From Arundinibacter roseus (GTDB lineage: Bacteria > Bacteroidota > Bacteroidia > Cytophagales > Spirosomataceae), in the NCBI RefSeq assembly GCF_004348825.1, contig NZ_SMJU01000001.1, positions 186,001-250,000 on the forward strand: a stretch of 64,000 bases of DNA, written 5' to 3'. Position numbers and translations under genes: made by a program. Below the pieces are notes generated by a model. It worked only from the letters and a program-made list of their open reading frames with translations, had not been told where the DNA came from and searched no databases. Below are positions 17,439 through 29,815 of this stretch, in pieces (the stretch's first letter is position 1; each line of letters starts with the position of its first letter).

Positions 17439-20400
17439 TTAGGCTGTTTCTATAATTTTTATTTCTTCTTCCGTCAAGTCGTACAGTTGATACACTAATT
17501 GGTCAATTTGGTTTTCTAAATCGGTTGTGTCGGCTTTCTGATTACTACTTTTTTCCTGAATAGCTCTCTCAGCTAATTCGATCAATTTAAACTGAGATTC
17601 CTCATCAATAAATGGAATTGGAATTTGTTCAAAATATTGTGGTTTAACCTCGATATATCCACCACTTCTAATTACACAAATACTTTTTAAAAAGTGCCAG
17701 ACAACTTTTGAATTAAGAATAGCTAGTAATGATCTATCATTTGAAGGCAAGAAAACTGCCGGAGCATTTAAGTAAACCCCTGTATCATCAAATGCAAACT
17801 TGTTTGTATTTTGAAGGTTAGGAAAAATTATTTTGGGCTTTTCAAATAAATCGTAATAGGCACAGTTTCTCAATTCCCACCAAAATTCACCTTTATCAAA
17901 ACGCTTTTTGGCTTTCTCTTTAAAACATTCAAGATGATTAAAAATTTCCGGATAAGATTCCTTCATTTTTCCCAATGCTACGTCCTCAGTTAGTTTACCA
18001 AAAGTCTTTGTTGTTGATTTACTTTCAAAGACAATCATTTTTTTAAATGGTTGAGGCGTTGTCCATTTCTTTAAATCTTTCCCATCATAAACATGTTTCA
18101 AAACAGCGTAATTTCCTAAATTACTTTCAATTACAAAACCTTCATTTAATCCTGTAATAATCCCTCGAAAACACTTTCCATATATTTCTCCAATAGTTTT
18201 ATATTTTTGAATTTTAGCTAAAATATTTTGTTCAAATGGATTTATGAAATTCCAGGCAGACGAATTTAATTTATCCTGTGCAACTTCTGTGTATACTGAT
18301 TCATCGCTTAATAAATCTTTATTGTTGAAATTAATTTTTGTGAATTTGAAAAATTTAAAATTGCTCTTATGCTTGTTTTTTTGAGCTATAAGTATAACTG
18401 GATAAGTTGTTGCTTCTTCAAAAACCGTAACATCTGTAAAATCAATGTATCTTTCAAATCGAAAATTATTTTCAACAAAATTTCTTAACGTTTTTCCTGC
18501 TGTTGTTTTGTCAAAAGTGTTATTAATAAATGAAAAATAACCCTTCTCTTTCATTATACTATGGCTTAACTCATAAAAATATGAAAAAATATCACCTCCT
18601 GATGTAAATACTTTATAGTTAGAAATAAGATGATTTTTAAAATCTCCTAACTCTTCCTGCCTGATATACGGAGGATTTCCAATCACCACATCAAAGCCTA
18701 CAAAATCGCCTTCATCGTTCAGTACTTCGGGAAATTCAAAGCGCCATTCAAAGGCATTTTCAAAAATTTTATTGGCTTTTATTTCTTCTATTTCTGTTTC
18801 TATCTTTTTTGTTTCAACGGTCAGTTGCTGCACTTTTTTGTTCCAGACGGCTTTTTCTTTTTTACTCATTTCAAAAAGTTGCTGCTGATTGGTCATTTGA
18901 AACAACTCGCCCGATAGTTTGCGCAGTTTTTTTAGTTTTGGGTCATTCAAAGAAATTTCACTTCTAAAATCCGACTTAATGTCGGCAATCAGCCGTTCCA
19001 TTTCTCTTTTTTGTTCCTTACTTTCGGCATTTCGGTACGTATCCACGGCTATCCGGTAGCTGTCAATCGTCCACTTGCTTTTCTTTAACGCCTGCTTAAT
19101 GTCGGCATCAATAGCAAACCGGCTCACCAGGGAATTCCCGCATTTGATGTTGATGTCAATATTGGGCAATGTTTCCAGTTCGGTGGCATTTTTGTAATAG
19201 GCATTTTTCAAAAGTTCAATCCACAAGCGCAACCGACAAATCTTTACTGAGTTGGGGTTAATATCCACACCAAAAAGGCAATTTTCAATCAGCGTCTGCT
19301 TTTCGTGAAAAAGTGTTTCCTGTATACGCTGACTTTCTTTATTGGCCGGGTTATAGTCAAATAGTTCACCTTCTTCGTCCGTAACGATCAACTCATCATT
19401 CACTACTTCTACCTCGTACCTGTGCAGCGACTTAGCCTGCCTGTCTTCCAGTATTTTCAGATCGTTTTTTACCGCAATCATTTCATTCAGAGCCGAAACC
19501 AGAAAATGCCCCGACCCCACCGCAGGATCACATATTTTGATGCTGTTGACTACTTCATTGGCTTTCTTTCTTGATATTTTATGCGGGATCAACTCATAAA
19601 TATCCTCAATTTTTCCAATCCCCAAATCAGGAAAATTCTGGTCAAATTTCTGCACCACCGCCTTTCGGATCGTTTCACGGCACATGTACATCGTAATGAA
19701 ACCCGGAGTAAAAAACGAGCCGTCTTTGTAGCCATTTATTTTTTCAAAAATCAACCCAAGAACCGACGCATTGATCAGCGTTTTGTTATCTTCCTGAATT
19801 TCTTCGGCTCCTTCATTACTAAAATCATAGGCATTCAGAAATTCAAACAAATAGTCGAGCGTGCTTAGTTTTCCCGTTCTTTTTTTACCATACTGATCTT
19901 TCAAAACGGTAGAAGAAATGATTGGAATCGTTTTCTCGTCTTTCAAATTGCTGATAAACAAAGTAAGCTGCTCCAAATCCGTTGGCTCAAAAAGCGAAGA
20001 ATTCAGGTAAGGTACTTTCTCAAACGCCTTTTTTACATCGTCGTTTCTTTTGTCATATTTACGTGCCAGCACCTGAAAAAACAACCCGTTCAGATCGTCA
20101 TAGTTTTTGATTTTATTCAGATTCAAAAACGAGTACGATTGGTCGCCTTTGTGGTACGTAAGCAGCTGCGCTTCCAGCAACTTCAAAAATAAAATCCGAT
20201 TGATCCACGTAATTGTGAGTTCCAGGGCTACATTGAAGAGTCGTTCCTCCTGCGTATTTCCGTATTGTCCCGGTTTTTCCAACCGGCTCAATTTATCCAG
20301 ACTATCCAGCTGAATAATCGCATCTTCAAGGATTGTTCCCGTATTTCGTTCACCCGCCTTGTTGCGTTCAATCAGCTTTTTGCTTCCTTCTTTGGTTTCG

Positions 20401-21185
20401 GTCAGGCCAATAATGTGTAGCAGCTCACTATAAAACCGTTTGTCGAGGCTATTGCTATCGTTAGTAAAAGGTAATTTTAACAGATGCTCCGGCGACAGCA
20501 ATTTGAACAACGCAATCAGCGCCGTATCGTCGGCCTTATCCGCATTACGCAGCGGTTTTTGATACTCCTGAATATTGAAATAGGTAAATTCAATTTCGCC
20601 GGTGATGTTACCGATAAACGGCTCCGCAATTTGTTTGTAAAAAAAATCGGTTTTGGTATCGGCCAGCCGTCCTCCTTCAAAATCGTTGAATTGTTTTACA
20701 AGGTTTTTATTTTGGGCAAAAAGTTTGTCAAATGTAGTCGCATCAAAAATGAACCATTCGTTGATATTGGTTGCTATGAGGTATTTTACTTCAAGATTTT
20801 TGTAGGTAATTCGCTCCCTCAAATAATACAGCACCAATTCCTGAAACGCCTTCACGTTCAGCTTTTTGGAGGTTAGCATTTCTGCTTTGTTGGTCGGTTT
20901 TTTCGCTTCAATAATTACCCCCACCGAAGTATTGGCGTGGGGGCCGTTATGAATCACAAGGTCGTTCCGGCCTTTGGTATTGATGAAGTGGTTTTGTTTG
21001 TAATAGGTATCTTTTAGAAAGTCCGAAACCAGGTTTTTATGAAACTCTTCGCTTTCCGTGTCATTTGTGCGGTCGAGTAACGAAATAAGATTGGTTTTGA
21101 AACGTTCAATTTCATCTCTGTTGGGCTTTACTTTCAGGAAGGCTTTGTTCAAAATCTTCCTTGGCTTGAATTCTCTTAATTCCAT
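17439..21185 (-). CDS. Single-chain type IIG restriction-modification enzyme (Eco57I-like)
   Basis: A 1248-residue protein fusing nuclease, adenine methyltransferase and target recognition. Residues 1-200 hold a PD-(D/E)XK nuclease, with D75 and E93-A-K95 in the order D...EAK. Residues 480-860 are the gamma-class N6-adenine methyltransferase: FFTP near 492, motif I DPAVGSGHF (553-561) and motif IV NPPY (837-840), interrupted by a charged coiled-coil insertion of about 100 residues (710-810). The remaining 390 residues form the DNA-recognition region. One chain can therefore cut and protect DNA; no separate methylase or specificity gene is next to it. The gene is visibly richer in A and T than its neighbours (especially 17800-18650) and is flanked on its upstream side by a repeat island, both signs of acquisition by transfer. 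The reading frame is intact. Confidence 0.92.
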   Translation of the reverse strand: MELREFKPRKILNKAFLKVKPNRDEIERFKTNLISLLDRTNDTESEEFHKNLVSDFLKDTYYKQNHFINTKGRNDLVIHNGPHANTSVGVIIEAKKPTNKAEMLTSKKLNVKAFQELVLYYLRERITYKNLEVKYLIATNINEWFIFDATTFDKLFAQNKNLVKQFNDFEGGRLADTKTDFFYKQIAEPFIGNITGEIEFTYFNIQEYQKPLRNADKADDTALIALFKLLSPEHLLKLPFTNDSNSLDKRFYSELLHIIGLTETKEGSKKLIERNKAGERNTGTILEDAIIQLDSLDKLSRLEKPGQYGNTQEERLFNVALELTITWINRILFLKLLEAQLLTYHKGDQSYSFLNLNKIKNYDDLNGLFFQVLARKYDKRNDDVKKAFEKVPYLNSSLFEPTDLEQLTLFISNLKDEKTIPIISSTVLKDQYGKKRTGKLSTLDYLFEFLNAYDFSNEGAEEIQEDNKTLINASVLGLIFEKINGYKDGSFFTPGFITMYMCRETIRKAVVQKFDQNFPDLGIGKIEDIYELIPHKISRKKANEVVNSIKICDPAVGSGHFLVSALNEMIAVKNDLKILEDRQAKSLHRYEVEVVNDELIVTDEEGELFDYNPANKESQRIQETLFHEKQTLIENCLFGVDINPNSVKICRLRLWIELLKNAYYKNATELETLPNIDINIKCGNSLVSRFAIDADIKQALKKSKWTIDSYRIAVDTYRNAESKEQKREMERLIADIKSDFRSEISLNDPKLKKLRKLSGELFQMTNQQQLFEMSKKEKAVWNKKVQQLTVETKKIETEIEEIKANKIFENAFEWRFEFPEVLNDEGDFVGFDVVIGNPPYIRQEELGDFKNHLISNYKVFTSGGDIFSYFYELSHSIMKEKGYFSFINNTFDKTTAGKTLRNFVENNFRFERYIDFTDVTVFEEATTYPVILIAQKNKHKSNFKFFKFTKINFNNKDLLSDESVYTEVAQDKLNSSAWNFINPFEQNILAKIQKYKTIGEIYGKCFRGIITGLNEGFVIESNLGNYAVLKHVYDGKDLKKWTTPQPFKKMIVFESKSTTKTFGKLTEDVALGKMKESYPEIFNHLECFKEKAKKRFDKGEFWWELRNCAYYDLFEKPKIIFPNLQNTNKFAFDDTGVYLNAPAVFLPSNDRSLLAILNSKVVWHFLKSICVIRSGGYIEVKPQYFEQIPIPFIDEESQFKLIELAERAIQEKSSNQKADTTDLENQIDQLVYQLYDLTEEEIKIIETA

Positions 21186-21221: not shown

Positions 21222-21576
21222 GCAAATCCGTGGGCCAAATCCGTGGGCTGTGTCGCACAGCCCCAAAGGCCCAAATCCGTGGGCTGCGTCGCACCATAGC
21301 CGTCAGGCTAAGAATAGCTTCGGAGAAGCGGAACGTTTGTAGTATCTCATAATCAGTTAGTTAACAAGCTTCGGAGAAGCGCAATGTTTGCAGCTAGTTC
21401 AAACTCGGACTCCATTGCCAAAGTGTAATATTGCGCTTCTCCGAAGCTTTTTTATAACCACAATGGCTTTTTCTACAAACATTGGGCCTCTCCGAGGCCA
21501 TTAGCCTGACGGCTATGGTGTCGCACAGCCCCAAAGGCCCAAATCCGTGGGCTGTGTCGCACAGCCCCAAAGGCTG
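21222..21576. repeat. Tandem 36-bp palindromic repeat, three units, middle one interrupted
   Basis: Units begin with AAATCCGTGGG at 21237, 21273 and 21541, and a truncated unit precedes them at 21223. Each full unit contains the perfect hairpin GGGCTGTG-TCG-CACAGCCC followed by CCAAAGGCC. The first two starts are 36 bases apart. The second unit is split by the 227-bp element at 21293-21519; subtracting that element and one 5-bp duplication puts the third unit exactly 36 bases after the second. The repeats lie upstream of the restriction-modification gene. Confidence 0.85.
21293..21519. mobile_element. MITE-like nested palindromic element with target duplication (copy 1)
   Basis: The ends are inverted repeats of about 47 bases, beginning ACCATAGCCGTCAGGCTAA and ending with its complement. 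Inside are four copies of a hairpin-forming motif of the type GCTTCGGAGAAGC followed by a CAATGTTTGTAG-like tail, two in each orientation, so the whole element folds into a nested hairpin. A 5-bp direct repeat GTCGC flanks it (21288-21292 and 21520-21524). No transposase is encoded, so it would depend on an enzyme from elsewhere in the genome. A related copy is at 29549-29761. Confidence 0.82.
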
Positions 21577-21687
21577 CACATCAATCTACGATGTATTTCT
21601 GTGAAATAGAAAAGTAAATCGGGGGAAATTATTGATCGTTTGCTTTTCACAGCCAAAGTGAATACCGGATTGTAAGATTTTTGGGCC

Positions 21688-21752
21688 GCTCCCAACGGAG
21701 CTCAAACGAATAAATATTCTAAGTTGCTACAAACGGATTGCTCCTACGGAGC
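21688..21752. repeat. Two short GGAGC palindromes
   Basis: GCTCC-CAAC-GGAGC at 21688-21701 and GCTCC-TAC-GGAGC at 21740-21752 are separate REP-like hairpins in the same gene-free stretch (21577-21834). They are followed by another half copy of the CCGTGGGCTGTG sequence at about 21764. They look like remnants of a second dispersed palindromic repeat family. Confidence 0.6.
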
Positions 21753-21834
21753 TTTTTCTCTCATCCGTGGGCTGTGGTGGTACAAAGCTCACGGAAGAAA
21801 GTGGGTGAACAAGCGACGAAATACATTCAGCTAC

Positions 21835-23364
21835 TTAGCGCGTAGCCTGCTCCAGCAATTCTCTGATTTCCTCAATATAGACCCGGTCGTTGCTGAGTCG
21901 TGGTACTTTATTTTGTCCGCCAAGTTTTTTACGGCGCCCCATCCATTCGTAAAAAGTACCGGGCGCAACCACCTGAACCAAAGGTTTGAGCAAGGCAATA
22001 TCCTGAAACCGTTTGGCATCATAGTCCGAATTCAGCCGCCGCAGGGCTGCATCAAGTGTTTCAACAAAAACGGACAGATCGTTTGGATCATTGGAAAATT
22101 CGATGATCCATTCGTGCCTTCCCCGCGCGCCATCCTCCATGTACACGGGCCCGGCCGTAAAGTCCCGGACAATTGCCCCTGTCTCTTCGCAGGCTTCGGT
22201 CAGGGCCATTTCGGCATTTTCAACAATCAGTTCTTCACCAAAAGCATTGATGAAATGCTTGGTGCGGCCGCTTACTTTCAGACGAAAAGGAAAGCGGGAA
22301 GTAAATTTTATGGTATCTCCGATCAAATAGCGCCACAAACCCGAGTTGGTAGACAGAATAATCGCATAGTTTTTATCCAGTTCTACTTCATCCAAAGTCA
22401 GCGTTTTTGGAAAAGGTTTGCCTAATTCTTCCATGGGCATAAACTCATAGAAAATGCCATAGTCGAGCATCAGTAGCATTTCGCCGGGATGAGCGAGGTC
22501 GTCCTGCAAGGCAATGAAACCTTCGGAAGCGTTGTAGGTTTCGAGGTAGGTAACTTTGTCGGACGGAAAATATTTTTTGGAAAAAAGCTCACGGTAGGGT
22601 TGAAACGCAACGGCCCCGTGAACAAATACCTCAAAATCGGGCCAAACATCCAGCATAGACTGCGCGCCTTTATGCTCCATGATCCGATCCAGCAGCACGA
22701 TTGTCCAGGTAGGTACGCCCAGGATACTCGTGACATTTTCCTCGGAGCATATAGCGGCCATTTTTTCCAGCTTTTCTTCCCAGTTTTCCAAAAGGGCAAC
22801 TTCCAGAGGCGGCGTGCGCATAAACTCGCCCCACGCGGGCAGATTTTGCATAATTACCGCCGACACATCGCCCACCTGCGTTTCCGAATTATAGGGATTT
22901 GTATGAATCGTGCCGCCAATCGAAAGTCCTTTTCCTTCAAAAACCTGCGTATCGGGCCGATTGGCCACGAGGAGCGTCATCATATCTTTTCCGCCCATGT
23001 GGTGGCACTCTTCCAGCGACTCCGGCGTGACGGGAATATACTTACTGCGTGCGTTGGTAGTGCCCGACGACTTGGAAAACCATTCGGTTGGCGTGGGCCA
23101 AAGCACGTTGGGCTCGCCTTTCAGCACCCGCTCGATGTACGGAAAGAGATCTTCGTAGGTTGACACCGGCACTTGCTCCCGGAATTCCTGAGTGGTTTTG
23201 ATTTGGCCATAGTTGTACCGAATCCCCCATTCGGTATAGCGGGCCGTTTGGATTAATTCGTTAAAAATACGCTGCTGAGTCTCGACCGGATTCTGCATAA
23301 AATCCTGAATACGCTGAAGGCGGCGTTTCAGAAACCAAACCACTACGTCGTTCACCATGCTCAT
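21835..23364 (-). CDS. GH3-family acyl-adenylating enzyme (paralogue 2)
   Basis: A 509-residue GH3-type enzyme, cytoplasmic, expected to adenylate a carboxylic acid and transfer it to an amine. Motifs: KSSGTTNARSKYIPVTP near residue 110, LETYNASEGFIALQDD near 275, and LKVSGRTKHFINAFGEELIVENAE near 360; the C-terminus has the same GGQNKVPRLSNDR block as paralogue 1 at 4076. The two proteins are divergent along most of their length, so this is not a recent duplication. Starts at 23364 (MSMVNDVVV) or 23358 are both possible. It stands alone, with a promoter box 63 bases upstream; the downstream side is the repeat island. Confidence 0.9.
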   Translation of the reverse strand: MSMVNDVVVWFLKRRLQRIQDFMQNPVETQQRIFNELIQTARYTEWGIRYNYGQIKTTQEFREQVPVSTYEDLFPYIERVLKGEPNVLWPTPTEWFSKSSGTTNARSKYIPVTPESLEECHHMGGKDMMTLLVANRPDTQVFEGKGLSIGGTIHTNPYNSETQVGDVSAVIMQNLPAWGEFMRTPPLEVALLENWEEKLEKMAAICSEENVTSILGVPTWTIVLLDRIMEHKGAQSMLDVWPDFEVFVHGAVAFQPYRELFSKKYFPSDKVTYLETYNASEGFIALQDDLAHPGEMLLMLDYGIFYEFMPMEELGKPFPKTLTLDEVELDKNYAIILSTNSGLWRYLIGDTIKFTSRFPFRLKVSGRTKHFINAFGEELIVENAEMALTEACEETGAIVRDFTAGPVYMEDGARGRHEWIIEFSNDPNDLSVFVETLDAALRRLNSDYDAKRFQDIALLKPLVQVVAPGTFYEWMGRRKKLGGQNKVPRLSNDRVYIEEIRELLEQATR

Positions 23365-29512: not shown

Positions 29513-29548
29513 ACCGCAAACTAGGGCGTAAATATTGTTGGTGAATTC

Positions 29549-29761
29549 ACCAGGCTTCGGAGAAGCCCAATGTTTGTAGGAAAAGCTGGTTTTTGTAACT
29601 AAATAGCTTCGGAGAAGCGCAATATTATGATTTTATGCTTCTTCGATGACTTTAAGTGACCGTCAACATTGCGCTTCTCCGAAGCTCCATAACTTGCTGA
29701 TTATGAATTACCTACAAACATTTAGCTTCTCCGAAGCTATTCTTAGCCTGACGGCTATGGT
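29549..29761. mobile_element. MITE-like nested palindromic element (copy 2, left end shortened)
   Basis: This 213-bp stretch aligns along its length with the reverse complement of 21293-21519: the right end TTAGCCTGACGGCTATGGT is identical, the middle keeps CTGATTATGA and the four GCTTCGGAGAAGC-type hairpins, and the inner sequence CGCAATATTA is shared. About 16 bases are missing just inside the left end, where ACCA is followed directly by GGCTTCGG. No convincing target duplication remains. It lies between the regulator's upstream region and the SPFH gene. Confidence 0.75.
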
Positions 29762-29815
29762 GAAAACACCAACAAAGGCATTAACAAAATACCAATGATG
29801 GCATTCTAGCTTCCC

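What the first reader, a model, noticed from the sequence alone, without database searches (positions are those of the whole stretch)
21288..21524. Transposase-less palindromic element caught inside a tandem repeat, with an exactly reconstructible target
Seen directly: a 227-bp element with ends ACCATAGCCGTCAGGCTAA and its complement, flanked by GTCGC on both sides, splits one unit of a 36-bp tandem palindrome. Removing 227 + 5 bases places the following unit precisely 36 bases after the split unit. This arithmetic makes a true insertion with a 5-bp target duplication very likely. The inserted DNA encodes nothing and carries four GCTTCGGAGAAGC-type hairpins in a nested inverted layout. It is a candidate MITE family that prefers the loop of another palindrome.
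Basis: seen in the sequence. Interest (0 to 1): 0.65.

Follow-up and report, generated by a model that had tools for sequence, protein, structure and literature searches.

The report
IS4-type MITE inside palindromic repeat
A 223-bp piece of DNA without genes, bearing the ends of a known type of jumping gene (IS4 family) and filled with small hairpin repeats from a second mobile system, has inserted at the exact centre of a third, unrelated palindromic repeat; elements of this kind are common, but the way these insertions centre on palindromes is unusually clear and testable.

Summary
Two corrections: the duplication is best read as 9 bp (GYGTCGCAC, one mismatch), not 5, and the element is 223 bp (21295-21517, CATAGCC...GGCTATG). 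Complete insertion sequences with the same ends (CATAGCCGTCAGGYTAAG) encode IS4-family transposases in relatives. The host's draft genome has several end copies but no such transposase. The four interior hairpins are REP units of the kind found in tandem array beside a RAYT/IS200-like transposase gene in the same genome: a palindromic repeat holding an IS4-type MITE holding REP units.

The most interesting result came from collecting copies. In 41 non-redundant copies with a resolved duplication, strong palindromes (16) are all centred exactly on the duplication; shuffles give 0.1. Duplication length follows the hairpin: 9 bp on three-base loops, mostly 10 bp on four-base loops, both within this one genome. 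Centring on a palindrome axis was already reported for ISRm22, an IS4-family element, so this is a new variant of a known kind. Whether an extruded hairpin or symmetric duplex is recognised remains open.

The parts
21245..21263 (.). intact target palindrome GGGCTGTG-TCG-CACAGCCC (unit 1 of the 36-bp tandem repeat)
   Evidence: 28 matches of this palindrome with up to 2 mismatches in the genome (some on both strands of one site), reversed-pattern control 0
21281..21294 (.). left half of the split palindrome unit; its last 9 bases (21286-21294, GCGTCGCAC) are the left target duplication
   Evidence: compared with the right copy and with other insertions
21295..21311 (+). left terminal inverted repeat CATAGCCGTCAGGCTAA
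   Evidence: identical in full insertion sequences with IS4 transposases
21295..21517 (.). 223-bp non-autonomous element (MITE), whole length an imperfect palindrome
21316..21342 (+). REP unit 1: hairpin GCTTCGGAGAAGC plus GGAACGTTTGTAG
   Evidence: same unit in tandem array at G000:C44 beside a Y1_Tnp gene
21367..21393 (+). REP unit 2: hairpin GCTTCGGAGAAGC plus GCAATGTTTGCAG
21427..21452 (-). REP unit 2', inverted partner of unit 2 (92% complementary)
   Evidence: (pair I3)
21473..21498 (-). REP unit 1', inverted, hairpin GCCTCGGAGAGGC next to CTACAAACATT
   Evidence: (pair I4)
21501..21517 (-). right terminal inverted repeat
21518..21531 (.). right half of the split palindrome; first 9 bases (21518-21526, GTGTCGCAC) are the right target duplication
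21549..21567 (.). intact target palindrome, unit 3
29551..29759 (-). second copy of the same REP-bearing element, end on its 29551 side eroded; flanked by GTGAATTCAC (29541-29550) and GTGAAAACAC (29760-29769) in a TTGGTG-N4-CACCAA palindrome

Best explanation
The feature is a 223-bp MITE mobilised in trans by an IS4-family (DDE, cut-and-paste) transposase that recognises the ends CATAGCCGTCAGGYTAAG. It inserted at the dyad axis of one unit of a 36-bp palindromic tandem repeat. The two strand cuts lay symmetrically, three bases outside the three-base loop on either side, so gap repair left a 9-bp duplication. The interior is not a remnant of the insertion sequence: it holds four REP units in nested inverted order (unit1> unit2> <unit2' <unit1'), of the type arrayed next to a RAYT/IS200-like gene in the same genome. 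Shown: ends, copies, autonomous partners in relatives, duplications, centring on palindromes, shared REP units. Inferred: mobilisation in trans, cut position, and capture of REP units by the MITE. Not settled: whether the transposase reads a hairpin (cruciform) or symmetric duplex.
For: Same ends bound complete insertion sequences of 1.44-1.57 kb with one IS4-family transposase each: L044, L047, L123, L125, L182, L244, L267; all carry the Y(2)R(3)E(6)K signature, and all five scanned exceed the NF033592 cut-off. Duplications of 9-10 bp dominate: 47 of 51 resolved copies, as described for IS4Sa (8-10) and ISH8 (10) in PMC2266710. Two REP-bearing 192-bp relatives with exact 10-bp duplications occur in G039, which also has the full insertion sequence. 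Same genome: exact 10-bp duplication GTGTTTTCAC on a four-base loop (L005), 9 bp on a three-base loop (window). Palindrome centre equals duplication centre in 16 of 16 strong cases; expected number 0.1 by shuffle. The REP interior is homologous in window, C10, second window copy, G039 and partly G169. A REP array lies directly after the Y1_Tnp gene at G000:C44:265192-265533.
Against: No orthologous empty site was available. One of nine bases of the duplication differs. No transposase of this type was found in the window's own draft genome (controls positive), so mobilisation here is inferred. About half of all paired ends found (48 of 97) have no clear direct duplication, although that set includes chance pairings with loosely matching ends, and in the Caldithrix copies the sites look non-palindromic, so palindrome targeting is not universal among elements with these ends.
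Confidence: 0.9

Rival explanations
1. The 5-bp reading: the element ends at ACC/GGT (227 bp) and a different kind of transposase makes 5-bp duplications.
For: GTCGC is the exact repeat flanking ACCATAG...CTATGGT.
Against: Other copies have exact 9-10 bp duplications starting at CATAG/CTATG. The bases outside CATAG vary with the host palindrome, for example GAG/CTC in L067 and L051. Full insertion sequences have IS4-type transposases, whose duplications are about 10 bp (PMC2266710).
Confidence: 0.04
2. No transposition: the structure is a mosaic made by recombination or RAYT activity among palindromic repeats, and the flanking repeats reflect the shared symmetry of palindromes or longer terminal inverted repeats of the element.
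For: Seven copies have flanks that are inverted rather than direct copies; several solo ends occur in the genome.
Against: 49 copies have direct duplications, including non-symmetric loops repeated in the same direction (ACA/ACA in L178, TCTC/TCTC in L196). The same ends bound insertion sequences with intact transposase genes. The target palindrome exists elsewhere without the element.
Confidence: 0.04
3. The RAYT (Y1 transposase) moves the whole element as a large REPIN, and the IS4-like ends are passengers.
For: Interior REP units match an array beside a Y1_Tnp gene.
Against: Y1 elements are not known to make target duplications (general knowledge); most elements with these ends and duplications have no such REP units.
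Confidence: 0.05

Closest known systems
ISRm22 of Sinorhizobium meliloti (IS4 family, subgroup IS4Sa)
   Same: IS4-family element that inserts into REP palindromes exactly at the axis of palindromy (PMC1525189; PMC2266710).
   Different: Autonomous; reported 6-bp direct repeats; one target family. Here non-autonomous copies, 9/10-bp duplications matched to loop size, many different palindromes.
IS4 family, subgroups IS4Sa / ISH8 / IS231
   Same: Ends start CAT; duplications 8-12 bp; YREK signature; IS231 members share TAA at positions 15-17 of the ends (PMC2266710).
   Different: The ends agree with more than one subgroup consensus; subgroup not assigned here.
BrickBuilt MITE of Porphyromonas gingivalis
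   Same: Bacteroidota MITE whose interior is made of repeats unrelated to the parent insertion sequence (PMC4596501).
   Different: IS5-type ends, 23-bp minisatellite, no palindrome targeting reported.
REPINs / BIMEs with RAYT transposases
   Same: Inverted pairs of REP hairpins, transposase gene flanked by the same hairpins (PMC2817692, PMC3116915, PMC3733652).
   Different: Here the REP units sit inside a TIR-bounded, duplication-making element; the GTAG motif is separated from the stem by about 9 bases.

Membership tests
MITE (non-autonomous derivative of an insertion sequence) | short, non-coding, terminal inverted repeats | tested here: met
   223 bp, no ORF of 80 codons or more, 17-bp identical TIRs
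MITE (non-autonomous derivative of an insertion sequence) | target duplication at several independent copies | tested here: met
   51 copies with TSD, 41 non-redundant, mostly 10 bp; own genome L001 (9, one mismatch) and L005 (10, exact)
MITE (non-autonomous derivative of an insertion sequence) | autonomous element with the same ends | tested here: met
   L044, L047, L123, L125, L182, L244, L267; none in the own draft genome
MITE (non-autonomous derivative of an insertion sequence) | empty site in a relative | tested here: inconclusive
   no other genome of the genus is held; only uninserted paralogous palindromes in the same genome
IS4 family (parent insertion sequences) | DDE transposase with Y(2)R(3)E(6)K | tested here: met
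   motif in all seven full elements; NF033592 above cut-off in the five scanned
IS4 family (parent insertion sequences) | duplication of about 10 bp (range 7-13 by subgroup) | tested here: met
   10 bp in 39, 9 bp in 8 of 51
IS4 family (parent insertion sequences) | assignment to one subgroup by transposase tree and ends | not tested
   ISfinder sequences not available; ends compatible with IS4Sa and ISH8, partly IS231
REP / RAYT system (interior units) | REP hairpins flanking a Y1 transposase gene in the same genome | tested here: met
   array beside Y1_Tnp at G000:C44
REP / RAYT system (interior units) | REP_Tyr_transpos model (NF047646) above its curated cut-off | tested here: not met
   28 bits against a cut-off of 80; above cut-off only for IS200/IS605 TnpA (77 against 55), so called RAYT-like, not a RAYT sensu stricto

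The most novel reading that the evidence does not exclude
The transposases of this IS4 group recognise the shape of a DNA hairpin (an extruded cruciform) rather than a sequence: they cut at a fixed distance, three base pairs, below the loop on both arms, so duplication length is loop length plus six, and stems of unrelated sequence in different phyla are all accepted.
Probability: 0.25. Interest if true: 0.7.

Novelty: new variant of a known kind. Interest (0 to 1): 0.42.

Why it matters
It gives a set of insertions in which target choice of a DDE transposase can be read from geometry: duplication length follows palindrome parity, and stem sequences differ between genomes. That makes hairpin recognition against symmetric-duplex recognition a directly testable question. 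It also shows how two mobile repeat systems (IS4-type ends and REP units) can combine into one element and land in a third repeat, a route by which bacterial intergenic regions become nested palindrome mosaics.

Tried and rejected
Rfam: no match in the window. Transposase search in the own genome by protein and by NF033592: nothing. Literature search for the end sequence: no paper. The 5-bp duplication and the idea that ACC/GGT belongs to the element were rejected after comparing copies. The idea that the palindromic flanks are an extension of the element's own inverted repeats was rejected because asymmetric loops are repeated in the same direction. Two Pfam calls failed because I gave out-of-frame or stop-containing ranges.

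Full report
The element. The window is part of contig C11 (186001-250000) of a 5.83-Mb draft genome. At 21295-21517 lies a 223-bp non-coding element with terminal inverted repeats CATAGCCGTCAGGCTAA. It splits the second unit of a 36-bp tandem repeat whose core is the palindrome GGGCTGTG-TCG-CACAGCCC. With the ends corrected, the duplication is 9 bp: GCGTCGCAC (21286-21294) against GTGTCGCAC (21518-21526), one mismatch.

Copies in the genome. The ends occur at nine places with at most one mismatch: both ends of the window element, one end of the second copy in the window, both ends of the copy on C10, and solo ends on C1, C17, C39 and C43. The C10 copy has an exact 10-bp duplication, GTGTTTTCAC, in a TTGTTGGTG-TTTT-CACTAACAA palindrome. 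Its loop has four bases; the window copy's loop has three. The second window copy (about 29551-29759) has a deleted outer end and lies in a TTGGTG-N4-CACCAA palindrome.

Autonomous partners. A search of 222 genomes of the same family for the 19-base end found 21 with matches and, for the reversed control pattern, almost none. Two pairs of ends there lay 1.45 kb apart and held single genes for 412-413-residue transposases. Five more full elements of the same design came from wider scans. All seven transposases carry the Y(2)R(3)E(6)K signature of the IS4 family, and the five scanned exceed the cut-off of the NCBIfam IS4 model NF033592. Identity between them falls to 39% (G046 against G039) while the ends stay the same. 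The window's own genome has no such transposase; both searches had positive controls, but a draft of 44 contigs can miss repeated insertion sequences.

Interior. The four hairpins are REP units (GCTTCGGAGAAGC followed by sequences like GCAATGTTTGTAG). The same unit forms a tandem array directly 3' of a Y1 transposase gene at G000:C44:265192-265533. Other Y1 genes in the genome have their own hairpin families; one of these families also appears right of the element in the window, at about 21685-21760. REP-bearing versions of the element are homologous through the interior in the window, on C10, in the second window copy, and in two exact-duplication copies of G039, and partly in G169. G039 shares a contig length with Arcicella aurantiaca DSM 22214, so it is probably that species, and it also holds the full insertion sequence. 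Most other elements with the same ends have different interiors.

Target choice. From all fetched loci I took element copies with both ends and a direct duplication with at most one mismatch: 51, of which 41 non-redundant; 39 of 51 have 10 bp and 8 have 9 bp. I rebuilt the empty site of each and scored base pairing of the arms around every half-base offset from the centre of the duplication. Mean pairs were 4.9 of 9 at offset zero and 1.9-2.8 at every other offset. Sixteen sites had seven or more pairs somewhere, and in all sixteen the best centre was offset zero; shuffled sites gave 0.1 on average. Pairing outside the duplication was five or six of six in 29% of sites and in 1.5% when right arms were swapped between sites. 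Nine-base duplications sit on odd palindromes with three-base loops (L178, L183, L192, L142, L155 and, with one mutated base, the window); ten-base duplications mostly sit on four-base loops. Stems near the loop differ: GTG/CAC dominates in this order, while GTT/AAC, GAT/ATC, GGC/GCC, GAC/GTC and GCG/CGC occur elsewhere. Elements of Caldithrix and some others show no palindrome, so the rule is not universal.

Flank inversion. Seven copies have flanks that are inverted copies of each other instead of direct ones. A likely cause is correction of an imperfect palindrome to a perfect one after insertion; this is an inference.

Known background. The IS4 family review gives ends CA------T and duplications of 8-10 bp for IS4Sa, CAT and 10 bp for ISH8, CAT and 10-12 bp for IS231 (PMC2266710). 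ISRm22, of subgroup IS4Sa, inserts into S. meliloti REP palindromes at the palindromy axis (PMC1525189). A Bacteroidota MITE with a repeat-built interior is known (PMC4596501). So each ingredient has a precedent. What I did not find described, in an open-access library only, is the match of duplication length to palindrome parity across many copies, and the IS4-MITE with REP interior.

Mechanism, step by step. Shown: common ends with IS4 elements, duplications, centring, interior REP units. Inferred: an IS4 transposase, now absent or unassembled, cut the MITE out and joined its ends to the two strands of a palindrome at positions symmetric about its axis; repair of the gaps made the 9-bp repeat. 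Open: hairpin against duplex recognition, and how REP units came to fill the MITE.

Noticed in passing
window 29541-29769: Second copy of the REP-bearing element in the same window, one end eroded, in a different palindrome family with a four-base loop.
   Followed up: partly
L041 1474-2450 (G000:C44:265165 onward): Y1/IS200-like transposase gene followed at once by a long tandem array of the same REP unit as in the element; GTAG-ending REPs in this phylum are not among those listed in PMC3733652.
   Followed up: partly
L042 1000-2450; window about 21685-21760: A decayed Y1 transposase gene (in-frame TAG) embedded in arrays of a second REP family (GCTCCTACGGAGC / GCACCGTAGGTGC); single units of this family lie to the right of the element in the window.
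   Followed up: no
L097, L144, L161, L165, L225, L261: Copies whose flanking 9-10 bases are inverted instead of direct repeats, as if the palindrome had been corrected after insertion.
   Followed up: partly
L246-L264 (genomes G316, G265): Two genomes of one genus carry about 20 copies of these ends each, mostly short elements with exact 10-bp duplications in palindromes; a good system for polymorphism studies.
   Followed up: partly
loci L079-L195: The same 17-base end is found in Bacteroidota, Caldithrix, Desulfobacterota, Gammaproteobacteria, a Thermoanaerobaculia MAG and others, although the transposases diverge strongly.
   Followed up: partly
window 17439-21185 (-) and 21835-23364 (-): Genes beside the element: a 1248-residue Eco57I-type restriction-modification methylase and a GH3-family protein.
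   Followed up: no
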